A stretch of DNA of 35,451 bases from Chlorobiales bacterium. Its GTDB lineage: Bacteria > Bacteroidota > Chlorobiia > Chlorobiales > JACMJS01. Shown here piece after piece: positions 9,484 to 15,917 of the stretch; position 1 is the first letter of the stretch, and every line of letters starts with the position of its first letter. The notes under the pieces were generated by a model. It made no database searches. It was not told the origin of the DNA and worked only from the letters and a program-made list of their open reading frames with translations. The translations under genes were made by a program, and so were the position numbers. The stretch lies in NCBI GenBank assembly GCA_014380515.1, contig JACMJS010000152.1:1-35451 (forward strand), in the 5' to 3' direction.

Positions 9484-11817
9484 ATGCCCGCGCCCGGTTT
9501 TCTGCTTCGCAAAGATGATGCGCCGGATCGGGCACAAGCTTTACTGCTTGCAATCGGGAGAAAAATAATTGCATTTCTGACTTGTGTTGCAATTTGCCTC
9601 GGTCTCGCACTCTTTCCGCATACATCGCTTGCGCAAACTTCCGATACCTTGAGAACCGCCGATACCTTGCGCACCGCACCCTCCGGCACTTCACCCGATT
9701 CCACGCCCGATACCGCCAAAGCCGCCCGCTTGCCGCAAACCATCGACCGCCTGCTCGACCGCTCTGTTGAATCCGGCGGCAACGACGAACTCTTGGAACA
9801 ACTCGCACTCTTGCGCAAACAAAAACTCAACCTCAACGCCGCAAGCGTCGCCGAGCTTACCGTCATTCCGTTCTTGACCATCATCGATGCCAAACGCATC
9901 GTCGACTACCGCGCGCGGCAAGGCCGGTTTCAAAGCCTCGATGAACTGGCGGGCGTGCTCGATGAAGATGCTGCAGGTTTGATCGCCGAGTTTCTTTACA
10001 TCGGCGTCCCGCGTCCTGACCGCGATCCCGCGCAGCCCGCGTTTATCAACGATTTGCGGCAAGGTGTTTTGCAGCAGCAAATTCAAATCGAATACATCGG
10101 ACGTTTTTTTACCGAAAGTCCCGCACGCTTCGGCTTTGCGACCGGCAGCAAGAAAACCGTTGTACGTGATTCGACTGGCCGCGCGATTGACACGATTAAA
10201 AGCATCGCCTATCTCGGCACGCCGCAACGCTTCTACAACCGCCTGCAAGTCCGCGTCTCCGAAAATTTTTTGATCTCTGCGCTGACCGATAAAGACATCG
10301 GCGAAGAATCCATCACCGACTTTGCGTCCCTGAGTTTTCAGGCGCGAGACATTTACAACCTCAAAACGTTGGTGGTGGGCGATTTTAATTTGTCGTTCGG
10401 ACAGGGCTTAGCGATGACGTCCGCCCGCGCGATTTCGAAAAGTCCCGACGCGGTGGTTTCCGCGAAACTCTCGAACCGGAATCTGCGCGCCTACACCTCG
10501 ACGACCGAACAAAACTTTTTTCGCGGCGCGGCGGCGGAACTTGGCATTCCAACTCCGCTCGGCACCATTGGCCTGACGCTGTTTTACTCCGATAATTTAT
10601 TCGATGCGTCGGATAGCGACACCGCATTCAGCAGCATTTCATATTCGGGATTGCACCGCACCGAAACCGAACTCGGTAACAAACGCAACATCGGCGAAAC
10701 GCTCGGCGGCGGATACGTGGAACTCAACCGTTCCGGCTTCGGAAATTACATTCACGTCGGCGTGCTCGGCTACGGGGCTGCATACAGCAAGGTGTTTCAG
10801 CCGGACGACCAACTTTACAACCGCTTCCGCTTTACCGGCGACCGTGTGAGCCTCGCCGCCATCGATGCCGACATCGTGATTGAAAAATTCAACGTGTTCG
10901 GCGAAGCGGCCTACTCTACCGGCGGGGCAGGCGCGACGGGCGAAGCGAACAAGGCAAGCATCGCGGCGATCATCGGTGTGCAAACGGAACTCGCCAAAGG
11001 CACGCGCGCGGTCGCGTTGTTTCGAAACTATCCGAAAGATTATTACTCGCCGCGAGCAAGCGCGTTTGCCGAGCGCGGTATTGATGCGAAGAATGAAACC
11101 GGATTTTATTTGGGCTTGCAAACCGCGCTGACGAAAAAACTCACCGTACGCGCCTACTACGATCTCTTCCGGTTTCCGTTCGTCAGTTTTACGACAGTGC
11201 TGCCGTCATCGGGCGATGATTTGCTGCTGCAACTTTCCTATAAACTCACGCCGCAAATTTTTTTGGAAGGTACGCTCCAATTGAAAAACATTGAGCAATC
11301 ACTCACGCAAATCACCACGGATGCCAGCCGGTTGGAGACGGAGTTTCGCGCCGCCGTCCCGACGAAAACGTTTCGAACGCGGCTGGATTTCATTTACCAA
11401 CCGACGGAAAAACTTGCCTTCAAAACCCGCGGCGAACGCAAGCAAGTGGACAAAACTTTTTTGACGGGTGTGGAAGGGGAATTCGGTTGGCTGATCTATC
11501 AGGATGTTGATCTGGAGTTGGTTCGAAACCGGTTGCATCTTGATGGCCGCATCGCCGTTTTCGAGACCGATACGTTCGACAGCGCGATCTATGCATATGA
11601 AGACGACTTACCGCTCGTCTCCAGCATTCCGGCATTCTTCGGCAAAGGCCGCCGCGTCTACCTCAATGCCCGATACCGTCTCACCGATGCCGTTGAACTT
11701 GCCCTGCGCTACGCGAATACTTTTAAAGACGGCATCACCAGTTCCGGCAGCGGCAACGACGCCTTTCTCACTAACGCCCCGAGCCTGTTCAGTCTCGCCC
11801 TCCGCGCCCGTTTCTAA
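9484..11817 (+). CDS. Outer-membrane beta-barrel protein with N-terminal helix-hairpin-helix (ComEA-like) domain
   Basis: 777 residues. A signal peptide ends near residue 50 (LALFPHTSLAQT). Residues about 115-170 form a helix-hairpin-helix pair typical of ComEA-like proteins (LNLNAASVAELTVIPFL, then DAKRIVDYRARQGRFQSLDEL). The remaining 600 residues alternate aromatic and polar residues and end in LRARF, a C-terminal phenylalanine signature of outer-membrane barrels. Such HHH-plus-barrel proteins occur across Bacteroidota and relatives with no assigned function; DNA binding or uptake at the surface is a guess from the ComEA-like part. A short duplication, SDTLRTADTLRTA, follows the signal peptide. 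The stop codon overlaps that of the convergent tsaC/sua5 gene. Confidence 0.85.
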   Translation: MPAPGFLLRKDDAPDRAQALLLAIGRKIIAFLTCVAICLGLALFPHTSLAQTSDTLRTADTLRTAPSGTSPDSTPDTAKAARLPQTIDRLLDRSVESGGNDELLEQLALLRKQKLNLNAASVAELTVIPFLTIIDAKRIVDYRARQGRFQSLDELAGVLDEDAAGLIAEFLYIGVPRPDRDPAQPAFINDLRQGVLQQQIQIEYIGRFFTESPARFGFATGSKKTVVRDSTGRAIDTIKSIAYLGTPQRFYNRLQVRVSENFLISALTDKDIGEESITDFASLSFQARDIYNLKTLVVGDFNLSFGQGLAMTSARAISKSPDAVVSAKLSNRNLRAYTSTTEQNFFRGAAAELGIPTPLGTIGLTLFYSDNLFDASDSDTAFSSISYSGLHRTETELGNKRNIGETLGGGYVELNRSGFGNYIHVGVLGYGAAYSKVFQPDDQLYNRFRFTGDRVSLAAIDADIVIEKFNVFGEAAYSTGGAGATGEANKASIAAIIGVQTELAKGTRAVALFRNYPKDYYSPRASAFAERGIDAKNETGFYLGLQTALTKKLTVRAYYDLFRFPFVSFTTVLPSSGDDLLLQLSYKLTPQIFLEGTLQLKNIEQSLTQITTDASRLETEFRAAVPTKTFRTRLDFIYQPTEKLAFKTRGERKQVDKTFLTGVEGEFGWLIYQDVDLELVRNRLHLDGRIAVFETDTFDSAIYAYEDDLPLVSSIPAFFGKGRRVYLNARYRLTDAVELALRYANTFKDGITSSGSGNDAFLTNAPSLFSLALRARF

Positions 11818-12788
11818 TTCGGGGATTCACTTTGCCCCACCGCCTTACGAAGCCGGTTCATCAACGCGAGGCCAAGCCCCTCTTCACCCACCGCTTGACA
11901 ATAAATCACTTTTGCACCGAGACGATCCGCCTCGCGAAAAAACTCGAAGAGCGAGGCGGCATAGTCTTCTAACGACCGGCAAATTTTTTTCAACTTTAGC
12001 GATGTATCGAAAATTTTTTCGAGACCGATATATGCTGCATCTGCGGCGGCATCACCGGGGAACGGCGGTTCGATAATGATGACGCGGGCTTCAGGAGCGT
12101 AGTGCCGGTATTTCATACCCGGGCTTGGCGGTGGCTTGGCGGCGTCGCTCCCTTTTGTACCGGCGGAAAAAAGTTTGATGGACGGCACCACCGCCTGAAG
12201 TTGCTCCAGTGTAACCGCGCCCGGACGCAGCAGCACCGGGGTCTTGCCCGTGCAATCGACGACTGTTGATTCCAATCCAATCTCCGTCGCCGCGCCTTTG
12301 AGAATACAGGCGATCCGTCCGTCCAAATCTTCTTTGACCGCTTGCCATGAGGTCGGGCTGGGTCTGCCGGAAAGATTGGCCGAAGGCGCCGCGACCGGCA
12401 CGCCGCACGCCGCCAGAAACTGTTGTGCCAGTTCATGTTTCGGCATCCGTACGCCGACGGTCTGAAGGCCGCCCGTTGCGAGGAGCGGCACGTACTTGCT
12501 CTTCGGCATCACAAGCGTGAGCGGCGCGGGCCAGAACGCCTCGATAAATTTTGTTGCAAATTCCGGCACGGAACTTACAAGCAAATCCAGATAGGAAAGG
12601 TGTGAGATGTGAACGATGAGGGGATTGTCGGGCGGACGCTGTTTGGCGACGAAGATTTTCTGAAGGGCGGATTCATCAAAAACATCCGCGCCGAGACCAT
12701 AGACGGTCTCCGTCGGGAAGGCGACCGGCTCGCCTCTGAGTAAAAACTGTGCGGCGATCTGCGGCGAGGGCGTGAGTTTGGTTTTCAT
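11814..12788 (-). CDS. sua5: L-threonylcarbamoyladenylate synthase, Sua5 type
   Basis: 324 residues with both the TsaC catalytic domain and the C-terminal Sua5 domain. It makes threonylcarbamoyl-AMP from threonine, bicarbonate and ATP, the first step of t6A tRNA modification, in the cytoplasm. Motifs include AFPTETVYGLGADV, the KQRPPDNPL loop, HELAQQF, APSANLSGRPSPT, a VLLRPGAV stretch, and the Sua5-specific SPGMKYRHYAP that opens the second domain at about residue 225. It converges on the barrel gene with stop codons overlapping (TAA on plus at 11815-11817, TAG on minus at 11814-11816). Upstream lies the BMC locus on the same strand, separated by 95 bp. Confidence 0.95.
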   Translation of the reverse strand: MKTKLTPSPQIAAQFLLRGEPVAFPTETVYGLGADVFDESALQKIFVAKQRPPDNPLIVHISHLSYLDLLVSSVPEFATKFIEAFWPAPLTLVMPKSKYVPLLATGGLQTVGVRMPKHELAQQFLAACGVPVAAPSANLSGRPSPTSWQAVKEDLDGRIACILKGAATEIGLESTVVDCTGKTPVLLRPGAVTLEQLQAVVPSIKLFSAGTKGSDAAKPPPSPGMKYRHYAPEARVIIIEPPFPGDAAADAAYIGLEKIFDTSLKLKKICRSLEDYAASLFEFFREADRLGAKVIYCQAVGEEGLGLALMNRLRKAVGQSESPN

Positions 12789-12883: not shown

Positions 12884-13435
12884 TTATGATTTCGGGGCGG
12901 CGGCGGTGATTGCGGCGATGAGTTCATCTTTGCTCGCCCGCGAAATCTCGCGGCCTTGAATCGGCAGCGCATCGATCTTGCGCGCCATGCGCCGCAGGTC
13001 TTCAACCGTCATTGCCGAAAGGGCGGCGGCCTCAAATGTGATTTGAACATTGCCGTCGCCGTTCGCGGTATCACTATGAGATGTATCGCCGTTGGCCGCG
13101 TCATCATTGGCCGGAACGGGATTCGATGCGACGGCTTTTTTCTTTCGGCTATCGATCTCAATGTAAATGAGAGTCTCGTTGAGTTCGGGATCGGGGCGGG
13201 GAATGATGTGCGCGCCGACGAGCATCCCAATCCGCTTCGCCGCCGCCGCACCCGCATCGACGGCGGATTGAACGGCGGCGATTTCACCGACCAATTTGAT
13301 CGTAACCAAACCCGCATCGACGCGGTCTTTCGAAATCAATTTCACATCGGCGGCTTTCACCGCAGCATCGGCGGCTTCAATCGCCGCAACGAGGCCGCGC
13401 GTTTCGATCAGACCGAGTGCCAGTTCTTCCCTCAC
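12884..13435 (-). CDS. BMC-domain hexameric shell protein with C-terminal SAP/Rho-N-like extension
   Basis: 183 residues from a GTG start. Residues 4-92 are a BMC-H domain (ALGLIETRGLVAAIEAADAA to GMLVGAHIIPRPDPEL), the fold that forms hexagonal tiles of bacterial microcompartment shells. The pore loop reads VDAG at 39-42 rather than the usual glycine-rich GSG, placing an acidic residue at or near the pore. Residues about 97-132 are a low-complexity linker rich in Asn, Asp, Thr and Ala. Residues 139-178 (LSAMTVEDLRRMARKI through SKDELIAAITAA) resemble a SAP or Rho-N helical domain, often nucleic-acid binding; EutK is a known precedent for a shell protein with such a tail. It begins 8 nt after the preceding stop codon, with no clear ribosome site, so translational coupling is likely. 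Confidence 0.88.
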   Translation of the reverse strand: MREELALGLIETRGLVAAIEAADAAVKAADVKLISKDRVDAGLVTIKLVGEIAAVQSAVDAGAAAAKRIGMLVGAHIIPRPDPELNETLIYIEIDSRKKKAVASNPVPANDDAANGDTSHSDTANGDGNVQITFEAAALSAMTVEDLRRMARKIDALPIQGREISRASKDELIAAITAAAPKS

Positions 13436-13443
13436 GCCGGTCG

Positions 13444-14085
13444 TTACTTGCTGCCTTTGGAAATGTTCGCAATTTCGGTGGCCAGTTTCGGGGCTTCCGA
13501 CACCGCCGATTGCAAATTCTCTTTAGCTTTGCCGACCGCATCGACCACGCCGCCCGCATCCAGCGGTGAGAAATCTTCTTGCGGACGCAATCCGCCCAAC
13601 TGTGAAAGCAACTCGCTTGCCCGCGACTGATCTTTCGTTAACGAAGCGGAGAGTTCCGCCAAAACGGTTTTGAAGTCCATCATCTTCGCAGCTTTGTCTT
13701 TGGCCGCAGTTGAGGCGGCTTTGGCGGAGTTGGTGGCGAAATCGGCGGGCTTCGCACCGTATTTGCCGACGAGGAATTTCGTCTGTTGCATCCGTCCGTT
13801 GATGCTGGCTGATTCGCTGAAGATGTTATCGTACTTCGCGCTGCCGACGGTTTTATACTTGACATTTTCGCCGACGCCGTCGAAATCCGCGACGCCTTCA
13901 TAGACGCTCATCACGGGAAATAGTTTGCCGAGCTTCAACGAGACTTCTTCGAACTTGGCGCGGGGCTGGTTGCTGACGGGCGGTGCGGCGGGCAACCCGA
14001 ACTGCGCGGATGCAACCTTGGCATTGAAAAGTTCTGCACTGAGAAGTGCAAGCGTGAGAACGGCGAGGAAGATTGACCTTTTCAT
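13444..14085 (-). CDS. Exported protein of unknown function encoded between two BMC shell genes
   Basis: 213 residues from the ATG at 14085, which gives a clear signal peptide (MKRSIFLAVLTLALLSAELF, cleavage probable after VASA at residue 27). The mature part is mostly helical and rich in Ala, Lys and Ser, with a beta-like stretch near residues 55-85 (GVADFDGVGENVKYKTVG), then long predicted helices such as KAASTAAKDKAAKMM and LTKDQSRASELLSQLGGL. No cysteine is present and no family was recognised. It lies in the same transcription direction between two shell genes, 74 bp after the first and 8 bp before the second. An exported product within a cytoplasmic-shell locus is odd; an alternative is that the hydrophobic N-terminus is a membrane or shell anchor. 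Function is not assigned. Confidence 0.78.
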   Translation of the reverse strand: MKRSIFLAVLTLALLSAELFNAKVASAQFGLPAAPPVSNQPRAKFEEVSLKLGKLFPVMSVYEGVADFDGVGENVKYKTVGSAKYDNIFSESASINGRMQQTKFLVGKYGAKPADFATNSAKAASTAAKDKAAKMMDFKTVLAELSASLTKDQSRASELLSQLGGLRPQEDFSPLDAGGVVDAVGKAKENLQSAVSEAPKLATEIANISKGSK

Positions 14086-14159
14086 ATTTGATGTGGTTCG
14101 ATTGTGGTGCGATGTGGTTTTATGTCGTGGAAAAGAAGAAATAAAAATCATTGGCAGGA

Positions 14160-14441
14160 CTACACGCTGCGCTTGGGAAGAATAAGTTCGACGTCTTGAT
14201 GCGGGCGGGGAATGACATGAACGGAAACGAGTTCCCCGACGCGCTGCGCCGCCGCCGCGCCCGCATCGGTCGATGCTTTGACTGCGCCGACGTCGCCGCG
14301 AACCATAACTGTAACATAGCCGCCGCCGATGGTTTCTTTGCCGATCAGTTCAACTTTTGCGGCTTTGACCATGGCATCGGCGGCTTCGATTGCGCCGATA
14401 AGTCCCTTGGTTTCAACCATTCCGAGTGCGTCCATTGCCAT
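14160..14441 (-). CDS. BMC-domain hexameric shell protein (PduA/EutM/CcmK-like)
   Basis: 93 residues, the standard length for a single-domain BMC-H protein. Canonical features are [20 protein letters not shown], the pore loop IGGG at residues 38-41, [20 protein letters not shown] and [20 protein letters not shown]. Such proteins assemble as hexamers in the facets of microcompartment shells, with the glycine pore passing metabolites. The start is fixed by a strong AAGGAG site 9 nt upstream, which predicts efficient translation, as expected for a major shell tile. It is the first gene of a three-gene minus-strand cluster. No shell pentamer (BMC-P), trimer (BMC-T) or cargo enzyme gene lies in the window. 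Confidence 0.95.
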
Positions 14442-14787
14442 GCAAAAAATCTCCTTGAAAAATGTGTTTGTAACGAAAATGTGTGTCGGGTATTGCTGTA
14501 AAAAAGCGAACGAAGTTAAACCCTAAACCGCAGATTTACAACAAACCTGCGTGTGCGGTGCATAAATCTTCGGCCCGGACGCGCCGGTTTTGCCGCCGGA
14601 ATTTTTTTGCCTATTTTCAAACGCTTCTTCAACACTTCCACACTAAATAACAGGGTAGAAACAGTGTCCGCTCCAACGGCACTGATGCCGCGCTGCAAGC
14701 GACAGCGGCAGGCAACGGCCAAGGAAGCTAAAGAGGCCGCTCTCAAAGAAAAGACACGCTCCGCAGTTTGTAACTTGATCAACAACT
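14442..14787. other. 346-bp divergent intergenic region between BMC operon and response-regulator pair
   Basis: No convincing gene. Open frames on both strands here (for example 14553-14795 plus) lack family features or good starts. The region must contain the promoters of the BMC cluster and of the response regulator at 14788. A GC-rich segment with short CCGG/CCGG pairing (about 14575-14600) is followed by a run of T at 14602-14608, which could form a hairpin, but the stem is weak. Confidence 0.4.
14451..14456 (-). promoter_or_regulatory. Strong Shine-Dalgarno site of the main BMC shell gene
   Basis: CTCCTT on the plus strand reads AAGGAG on the coding strand, 9 nt before the ATG. This is one of only two full Shine-Dalgarno sites noticed in the window. 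Confidence 0.75.
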
Positions 14788-15417
14788 ATGGTTAGAAAAG
14801 TAATGTGCGCCGATGACGATGAACACATTCATCTCTTTCTGCGCGCGGTCTTGGAGATTTCTCCGGTCGTGATGATGAAATCGTTCTACAACGGCAAAGA
14901 CGCCTACGAAGAATTTCAGAAAGTCGATTACGACCTGATCATCACCGATCTCTCGATGCCTGAAATGACGGGCTTGGATTTTATGCGGGCACTCTCGCAA
15001 TCGAAAACGAAATTCAAAATTCCGCCCGTCGTGGTGATGAGTTCGATGTCGGATTCGTCGCTGATTATGAAATGCCTCAATGCAGGCGTCGCCGATTACA
15101 TCATCAAACCGGCTGAACCCTCGCGCATCCGCTCGACCGTCTTCGGCCTGTTGCGATTGGACAATACCGGCAAACCGCTCTCGCACCGCACGCTCTCGTC
15201 GTTTATGGGCGAGATGACGCTCACCAAAGCATCGGGAAAATTGTTGCTCACCGATGGCGACGCCGCCGGTGAGATGGTTTATGAAGACGGAAAGCTGAAG
15301 CAAATCCGTTTCGGCGCGATGAACGGCCTTGAAGCTTTAGAAGAAGCCAAGAAGTCAAAGTTCCTTCAGATTTCCTTCGTCGCCAGCGACGCCGCCACAG
15401 GTGTTCAAATCACCTAA
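14788..15417 (+). CDS. Response regulator: receiver plus DUF4388/PATAN-like C-terminal domain
   Basis: 209 residues. The receiver occupies residues 1-125, with the acidic pocket DDDE at 9-12, phosphoacceptor Asp54 (LIITDLSMPEMTG), MSS at the Ser/Thr switch position and Lys in YIIKPAEP. The C-terminal 70 residues (LTKASGKLLLTDGDAAGEM, VYEDGKLKQIRFGAMNGLEAL, KFLQISFVA) match the short beta-rich DUF4388/PATAN pattern, used in several phyla for protein-protein contacts rather than DNA binding. It has no DNA-binding domain, so it is probably not a direct transcription factor. It is divergent from the BMC cluster and followed 32 bp later by a second response regulator. A partner histidine kinase is not in the window. 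Confidence 0.88.
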   Translation: MVRKVMCADDDEHIHLFLRAVLEISPVVMMKSFYNGKDAYEEFQKVDYDLIITDLSMPEMTGLDFMRALSQSKTKFKIPPVVVMSSMSDSSLIMKCLNAGVADYIIKPAEPSRIRSTVFGLLRLDNTGKPLSHRTLSSFMGEMTLTKASGKLLLTDGDAAGEMVYEDGKLKQIRFGAMNGLEALEEAKKSKFLQISFVASDAATGVQIT

Positions 15418-15449
15418 GGTCGCCAAGCCCTTGATACGAACCTGATATT

Positions 15450-15917
15450 ATGAGAGAAAGTGTGATAGAATCGATAATGGATCAACGCAACCCGCAGCCC
15501 GCTCAACACGCCGTGTCAGCCCCTCCGAAACGCCGGATTTTGATTACGGACGACGATGAGCAGATTCATCTTTTCTTCAAGAGCGCGCTCGCATCTTTAC
15601 CCGTCTCGCTTACCTTTGCACACAACGGCCTGCAAGCCCTCGCCGAAGTCAAATCCAGCCGCTACGATTTGATCATGCTCGACTTGCTGATGCCGGAATC
15701 GAGCGGCGGCGATTTTATGCGCGAAGTGAAACTGCTGGCCGAATCGCATCCGCCGATCATCATCATGAGTTCGATCATGGACGCCGATTTGGTGCGCAAC
15801 TGCCTGCGGGCGGGTGCAAGCGACTTCATCACCAAACCGATCACGCCTTCCGGCATCCGCGAAAAAATCCGTGCGATTCTATACTTGGATGACCTTGCAT
15901 CGGGCAACCCGGCTTAA
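15450..15917 (+). CDS. Single-domain response regulator (CheY-like)
   Basis: 155 residues from the ATG at 15450; the ATG at 15477 (MDQRNPQP) is a possible alternative, as neither has a clear ribosome site. After a 27-residue polar leader comes a receiver: DDDE at 34-37, phosphoacceptor Asp78 (LIMLDLLMPESSGG), MSS switch, and Lys in FITKPITPSGI. No output domain follows, so it likely acts by protein-protein contact. It resembles the receiver of the preceding gene (IHLFxxxAL, DLxMPE, MSSxMD) and probably arose by duplication. Its TAA stop is formed by T15915 plus the first two bases of the 205-bp element at 15916-16120. Confidence 0.9.
   Translation: MRESVIESIMDQRNPQPAQHAVSAPPKRRILITDDDEQIHLFFKSALASLPVSLTFAHNGLQALAEVKSSRYDLIMLDLLMPESSGGDFMREVKLLAESHPPIIIMSSIMDADLVRNCLRAGASDFITKPITPSGIREKIRAILYLDDLASGNPA

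What the first reader, a model, noticed from the sequence alone, without database searches (positions are those of the whole stretch)
12884..14441. Small BMC shell locus with no visible cargo enzymes
Two BMC-H shell genes flank an exported protein in one minus-strand cluster, while genes for BMC-P vertices, BMC-T trimers, aldehyde dehydrogenase, phosphotransacylase or other signature enzymes are absent from at least 12 kb on each side. Known metabolosomes usually group shell and enzyme genes. This is either a satellite shell locus of a main BMC elsewhere in the genome, or a BMC-H-based structure with a different job, such as a sheet, tube or scaffold.
Basis: partly seen in the sequence, partly recalled or inferred. 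Interest (0 to 1): 0.78.

Follow-up and report, generated by a model that had tools for sequence, protein, structure and literature searches.

The report
Shell genes of a scattered microcompartment
The two shell-protein genes are one piece of a complete bacterial microcompartment whose other shell genes and likely enzymes are scattered around the same chromosome, so the odd-looking locus is an already catalogued "fragmented" type, but its probable cargo can now be named and tested.

Summary
Two BMC-H genes (14160-14441 and 12884-13435, minus strand) flank a small exported-protein gene, with no other shell or enzyme genes nearby. The genome has no main BMC operon, so this is not a satellite locus. 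It does encode three BMC-P pentamers on two other contigs, so it is not a BMC-H-only sheet or scaffold. Two BMC-H plus three dispersed BMC-P fits the "FRAG" BMCs catalogued in 2021 (PMC8217296); relatives, including one single-contig genome, carry the same scattered set. New here is the likely cargo. A CoA-acylating aldehyde dehydrogenase with a conserved C-terminal encapsulation-peptide-like helix occurs in 53 of 55 genomes with BMC-P and 0 of 242 without (297-genome phylum sample). In Gemmatimonadetes the same BMC-H pair sits in one operon with this enzyme and PduL. In Chlorobiales a class II aldolase carries a C-terminal helix only where the shell exists; PduL is absent. BMC-H2 ends in a basic Rho_N/SAP-like domain that may position the organelle, as proposed for EutK. 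It is an ordinary member of a known, functionally obscure kind whose function is now testable.

The parts
14160..14441 (-). BMC-H1, canonical EutM-like hexamer shell protein (93 aa)
   Evidence: PF00936 102 bits; NCBIfam EutM model 136 bits, cut-off 133; 91-93% identical homologues in Chlorobiales and Ignavibacteria MAGs
14451..14455 (-). AGGAG ribosome-binding site of BMC-H1
   Evidence: read from sequence
12884..13435 (-). BMC-H2, hexamer shell protein with C-terminal extension (183 aa, GTG start)
   Evidence: PF00936 89 bits; same architecture in all six order relatives with a BMC-H pair and in Ignavibacteria, Rhodothermales and Gemmatimonadetes
13046..13144 (-). disordered linker of BMC-H2 (residues 98-130)
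   Evidence: AlphaFold2 pLDDT below 50
12899..13030 (-). C-terminal Rho_N/SAP-like helical domain of BMC-H2 (residues 136-179)
   Evidence: AF2 pLDDT about 95; Rho_N E=1.3e-4 at 22.3 bits, below the cut-off of 24.9; SAP and HeH also weakly matched among 20 homologues; Rho and 3'hExo SAP among the nearest folds, TM 0.6-0.66, E not significant
13444..14085 (-). exported protein of unknown function between the BMC-H genes; probably not part of the BMC
   Evidence: signal peptide; no Pfam match; between the BMC-H genes only here and in G007
11814..12788 (-). Sua5/YrdC-type gene downstream of BMC-H2; conserved neighbour, not BMC
   Evidence: near the BMC-H pair in the window and five order relatives; family name from my reading of the sequence, not from a family search

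Best explanation
The locus encodes the facet proteins of a FRAG-type metabolosome whose genes are dispersed. BMC-H1 and BMC-H2 form the facets and three BMC-P (two on contig C394 between a GAF/GGDEF gene and a sigma-70 gene, one on C135) close the vertices. Shown: the parts, their dispersal and their co-occurrence. Inferred: the shell encloses a CoA-acylating aldehyde dehydrogenase (contig C8), recruited by its C-terminal amphipathic helix, which turns an aldehyde into acyl-CoA. In Chlorobiales the aldehyde is probably supplied inside by a class II (fuculose-phosphate-like) aldolase that also carries a C-terminal helix. No PduL is present, so CoA is not recycled by the standard route. Most speculative: the basic Rho_N/SAP-like tail of BMC-H2 tethers the organelle to the nucleoid, as proposed for EutK.
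For: Whole-genome search: only two PF00936 and three PF03319 genes, at three loci. Same complement in order relatives; in single-contig G002 the aldolase, AldDH, BMC-P3, BMC-H pair and BMC-P pair lie at 0.05, 1.26, 1.81, 2.22 and 3.15 Mb. AldDH: NCBIfam acetaldehyde dehydrogenase (acetylating), 624 bits, cut-off 620; at 69-100% identity in exactly the 8 of 41 order genomes with BMC-P; in the phylum sample in 53 of 55 BMC-P genomes and 0 of 242 others, the two exceptions carrying conventional multi-gene BMC loci with a different AldDH. Its C-terminus ends in a conserved helix (GISEEEIDRIIKEF type) after a variable linker in all 8 order members and 13 of 13 phylum loci read; hydrophobic moment of the G000 peptide above shuffles, p=0.0004. 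Gemmatimonadetes L022 and L074: BMC-H1, BMC-H2, AldDH and PduL in one operon. Aldolase: single-domain PF00596 in all 8 BMC genomes and only 3 of 33 others; two of those three can be read to the end and lack the C-terminal extension. No PduL in 16 genomes.
Against: No protein has been shown to be encapsulated. The aldolase of the window genome is cut by a contig end, so its tail is unseen. The aldolase helices are only variably amphipathic, and the Ignavibacteria homologues read here (about 40-46% identical) have no such tail. Co-occurrence tests were not corrected for phylogeny, and the AldDH cut-off (1e-125) was set after seeing the nearest tail-less homologue at 1e-120. G017 (81% complete) has the AldDH and one BMC-P but no BMC-H was found.
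Confidence: 0.82

Rival explanations
1. Satellite locus of a conventional BMC operon elsewhere in the genome.
For: Satellite shell loci are common (PMC8217296); the assembly is in 420 contigs.
Against: No further PF00936 gene in a 97%-complete genome; no PduL; no AldDH beside any BMC-P gene; single-contig relative G002 shows the same dispersed set and nothing more.
Confidence: 0.04
2. A BMC-H-only structure (sheet, tube or scaffold) with a non-compartment job.
For: No BMC-P or BMC-T near the locus. A sister genus (G004, G013, G019) really has only BMC-H of one type and no BMC-P or matching AldDH.
Against: The window genome has three BMC-P genes, and BMC-P and the AldDH are present or absent together across the phylum.
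Confidence: 0.06
3. Remnant of a decayed BMC with no present function.
For: Loci are dispersed, PduL is missing, and the BMC-P pair is cleanly absent between the same neighbours in G004, G005, G013 and G019.
Against: BMC-H1 is 88-96% identical across the order; intact frames and the same complement in many families; AldDH and BMC-P are present or absent together.
Confidence: 0.04
4. A FRAG BMC whose cargo is the acylating AldDH alone or with another enzyme; the class II aldolase is an unrelated housekeeping enzyme.
For: Aldolase tails vary in amphipathicity; three genomes without BMC-P keep the aldolase; Ignavibacteria homologues have no tail.
Against: The tail is present in all seven BMC genomes where the C-terminus is readable and absent in the readable genomes without BMC-P; class II aldolases with a C-terminal EP are found in ACI BMC loci (PMC8217296).
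Confidence: 0.3

Closest known systems
FRAG BMCs (Sutter et al. 2021, PMC8217296)
   Same: Shell genes at several genomic sites, three BMC-P genes, mostly remote from enzymes; reported in Ignavibacteriae and closely related phyla
   Different: FRAG subtype not assigned here (the paper's supplement could not be read); a cargo, acylating AldDH and in Chlorobiales a class II aldolase, is proposed here from co-occurrence, a compact Gemmatimonadetes operon and protein tails
ACI and PVM BMCs
   Same: Class II aldolase as signature enzyme (in ACI with a C-terminal EP); ACI has a BMC-P triplet and its AldDH on a satellite locus
   Different: ACI keeps the aldolase with shell genes in one locus; here every part is dispersed
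EutK / PduK
   Same: BMC-H domain plus C-terminal extension; the EutK tail is positively charged, may bind nucleotides, and EutK governs BMC distribution in the cell (PMC12487888)
   Different: The tail here is a Rho_N/SAP-like helical domain; homology to the EutK tail was not tested
HO BMC (Haliangium ochraceum)
   Same: BMC-P triplet; the best solved-structure match of one BMC-P is to entry 5v74, the H. ochraceum shell
   Different: HO has BMC-T proteins and main loci (PMC8217296, PMC4207490); none here

Membership tests
FRAG BMC | Shell genes dispersed over several genomic locations, no defined locus | tested here: met
   PF00936 and PF03319 found at three contigs; same dispersal in single-contig G002
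FRAG BMC | BMC-P triplet (three paralogues, two from fixed clades) | tested here: inconclusive
   Three BMC-P present, with different best solved-structure matches; clade placement not tested for lack of the reference tree
FRAG BMC | Shell genes remote from known enzymes | tested here: met
   AldDH and aldolase are on other contigs; shell neighbours are a Sua5-like gene, GAF/GGDEF, sigma factor and a phosphoglucosamine-mutase-like gene
FRAG BMC | Occurrence in Ignavibacteriae and closely related phyla | tested here: met
   The order contains a MAG titled Chlorobiales (L014 = G011); close homologues in Ignavibacteria
Canonical metabolosome | CoA-acylating aldehyde dehydrogenase with encapsulation peptide | tested here: met
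   from sequence only; encapsulation itself not tested
Canonical metabolosome | PduL-type phosphotransacylase | tested here: not met
   No PF06130 match in the window genome or 15 relatives
Canonical metabolosome | Alcohol dehydrogenase for NAD recycling | not tested
Satellite BMC locus | A main locus with BMC-H and BMC-P elsewhere in the genome | tested here: not met

The most novel reading that the evidence does not exclude
FRAG BMCs of this phylum are aldehyde-to-acyl-CoA metabolosomes. In Chlorobiales they run without a PduL phosphotransacylase, are fed by an encapsulated class II aldolase, and are positioned on the nucleoid by a Rho_N/SAP-like tail on BMC-H2. The parts are held together only by encapsulation peptides and co-inheritance, with no shared operon.
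Probability: 0.4. Interest if true: 0.68.

Novelty: new member of a known kind. Interest (0 to 1): 0.5.

Why it matters
The function of FRAG BMCs was left open in the 2021 catalogue, partly because their genes sit far from enzymes, so the usual reading of function from operon neighbours fails. Phylogenetic profiling, a compact operon in another phylum and terminal peptides give a named cargo (acylating AldDH, near-perfect co-occurrence), a candidate aldehyde source (class II aldolase) and a shell-protein tail that could explain positioning. These are directly testable in a cultured member of the order.

Tried and rejected
(1) Exported protein between the BMC-H genes as a BMC part: rejected, since it is there only in the window and G007. 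(2) GAF/GGDEF protein next to the BMC-P pair as a BMC-specific regulator: its orthologue (52-54% identity) is kept next to the sigma factor in G004, G005, G013 and G019, which lack BMC-P. (3) A metabolic operon between BMC-P3 and AldDH in family f10 (about 14-15 kb apart): the intervening genes include DprA, MTHFR, penicillin amidase, a DivIC-like protein and a LytTR two-component pair, mostly housekeeping and on both strands; the one useful lead was a class II aldolase. (4) Response regulators divergent from BMC-H1: no conserved pairing with the BMC-H genes was found. (5) The inner conserved motif of the AldDH tail (SWMEEIEERIRLKAGN) is not amphipathic by hydrophobic moment, so it is not called an EP.

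Full report
Observation. The window is one whole contig (C210) of a 3.57 Mb, 420-contig, 97.3% complete genome. The minus strand carries BMC-H1 (14160-14441), an exported protein (start best at 14085, end 13444) and BMC-H2 (12884-13435), followed by a Sua5/YrdC-type gene. Both BMC-H genes score far above the PF00936 cut-off. Nothing else on the contig matches BMC-P, aldehyde dehydrogenase or PduL families.

Genome-wide shell inventory. PF00936 finds only these two genes in the genome, so there is no BMC-T and no other BMC-H. PF03319 finds three BMC-P genes: two adjacent on C394, between a GAF/GGDEF gene and an RpoD-like sigma gene, and one on C135 beside a phosphoglucosamine-mutase-like gene. 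No operon holds shell and enzyme genes, so the locus is neither a satellite nor a BMC-H-only structure. Among 40 order relatives the BMC-H pair recurs in G001, G002, G007, G009, G011 and G015, with three BMC-P (two found in G007); the BMC-P pair keeps the same two neighbours in all seven genomes compared. G002 is one contig of 3,293,456 bases, so dispersal is not an assembly artefact. G011 is the record titled 'uncultured Chlorobiales bacterium' (L014).

Classification. The 2021 BMC catalogue describes FRAG BMCs: shell genes at as many as six genomic locations, a BMC-P triplet, mostly remote from known enzymes, found in Ignavibacteriae and closely related phyla (PMC8217296). The window fits. 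The subtype could not be assigned because the supplement was not readable and the reference trees were not at hand. The catalogue does list AldDH among FRAG1-7, a few of them near shell genes, so an AldDH cargo as such was already expected; which one, and how tightly it follows the shell, is what is added here. No later paper using the term 'FRAG BMC' was found in the held library.

Cargo 1, aldehyde dehydrogenase. The genome has six PF00171 genes. One, P0001 on C8, matches NCBIfam 'acetaldehyde dehydrogenase (acetylating)' (624 bits, cut-off 620) and has a C-terminal extension ending ...KMSSDDIEKIVKTFSK. Close homologues (69-78% identity) occur in exactly the other seven order genomes that have BMC-P, and in none of the 33 that do not; the nearest outsider, G003, is 46% identical and lacks the extension. 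In a 297-genome phylum sample 53 genomes have the enzyme and 55 have BMC-P, and all 53 are among the 55, over 14 families and 43 genera. The two exceptions, G140 and G248, carry clustered BMC loci with a BMC-T-length shell gene and a different, N-terminally tailed AldDH. A naive Fisher test gives 8e-57, uncorrected for phylogeny. The tail is conserved: a motif like SW(M/I)EEIEERIRLKAGN, a variable linker, and a final helix like GISEEEIDRIIKEF in all 13 phylum loci read. The final helix of the window genome's enzyme is strongly amphipathic (p=0.0004 against shuffles); others range from p=0.01 to 0.23. This matches the published description of encapsulation peptides (terminal amphipathic helix after a poorly conserved linker; PMC12339742).

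Independent linkage. In two Gemmatimonadetes contigs (L022, L074) the same BMC-H1 and BMC-H2 genes are followed directly by this AldDH (in L022 with a tail LTEEDIERIVQNFLRERR) and then by a PduL-type gene (PF06130 E=2.5e-37 in L022; in L074 read by eye from the translation). This is the strongest evidence that the remote enzyme belongs with these shell proteins. PduL itself is absent from the window genome and from 15 order relatives tested.

Cargo 2, class II aldolase. A single-domain PF00596 protein (E at or below 1e-39) is present in all eight BMC-P genomes of the order and in three others (G004, G013, G019); the remaining 30 have none or only a weaker match, mostly in frames of about 700 residues. 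In the seven BMC genomes whose C-terminus can be read, the protein carries an extra tail, often with cysteine motifs, and a final helix such as LDFIKQTAEKVLKRL; in G004 and G019, which lack BMC-P and the AldDH, the protein ends without it (the G013 reading frame is broken before the end). The helix is amphipathic in some and not in others, and in the window genome the gene runs off contig C179, so this is weaker evidence. NCBIfam places it near fuculose-phosphate, ribulose-phosphate and related aldolases, below every cut-off, so the substrate is open. Class II aldolases are found in PVM, GRM5 and ACI BMCs (PMC8217296).

BMC-H2 tail. AlphaFold2 gives a confident BMC fold (residues 1-97), a disordered linker (98-130) and a confident four-helix C-terminal domain (136-179). 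Domain matches are mainly Rho_N, SAP or HeH, all below cut-offs; a separate model has Rho and 3'hExo structures among its nearest neighbours at TM 0.60-0.66, with non-significant E-values. The domain is net positive in all 20 homologues and also occurs on some Clostridia BMC-H. In Salmonella, loss of EutK, another BMC-H with a positively charged C-terminal domain, changes the distribution of Eut BMCs, and nucleotide binding is suggested (PMC12487888). A nucleoid-tethering role is therefore a reasonable but untested inference.

Loss series. G004, G005, G013 and G019 keep the GAF/GGDEF and sigma genes side by side with no BMC-P pair between them. G004, G013 and G019 also keep a BMC-H about 57% identical to BMC-H1, without BMC-P or the AldDH.

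Verdict. The locus is a new member of a known kind. What raises its interest is that the profile, operon and tail evidence turn an acknowledged open question (what FRAG BMCs do) into specific tests.

Noticed in passing
L174:7897-8172, L182:7681-8001, L183:7677-7946, L184:7784-8053 (G004, G013, G019): A lone type of BMC-H (57% identical to BMC-H1) in genomes without BMC-P or the acylating AldDH; the IPRPH motif has lost its arginine; dN 0.064 against dS 1.9 between G013 and G019 suggests constraint. A possible BMC-H-only function.
   Followed up: partly
C394 in G000 (L006:3076-6522) and equivalents in relatives: Two BMC-P genes sit between a GAF/GGDEF gene and the RpoD-like sigma gene in seven genomes; relatives without BMC-P have the same neighbours with nothing between.
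   Followed up: yes
L022:1284-4382 and L074:8001-11298: Gemmatimonadetes operon BMC-H1, BMC-H2, acylating AldDH, PduL: apparently a compact version of the same metabolosome.
   Followed up: partly
BMC-H2 C-terminal domain, window 12899-13030; also L072, L083, L090, L091: A Rho_N/SAP-like domain recurs on BMC-H proteins of Clostridia beside a related AldDH; apparently a shared shell-tail domain across phyla with no Pfam assignment above cut-off.
   Followed up: partly
aldolase tails in L249, L251, L252, L253 (C-terminal 35 residues): CxC...CxxC cysteine motifs in the linker before the final helix of the BMC-associated class II aldolase; could bind metal.
   Followed up: no
window 14788-15917 (+): Two response-regulator genes divergent from BMC-H1, the first with an extra C-terminal region of no Pfam family.
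   Followed up: no
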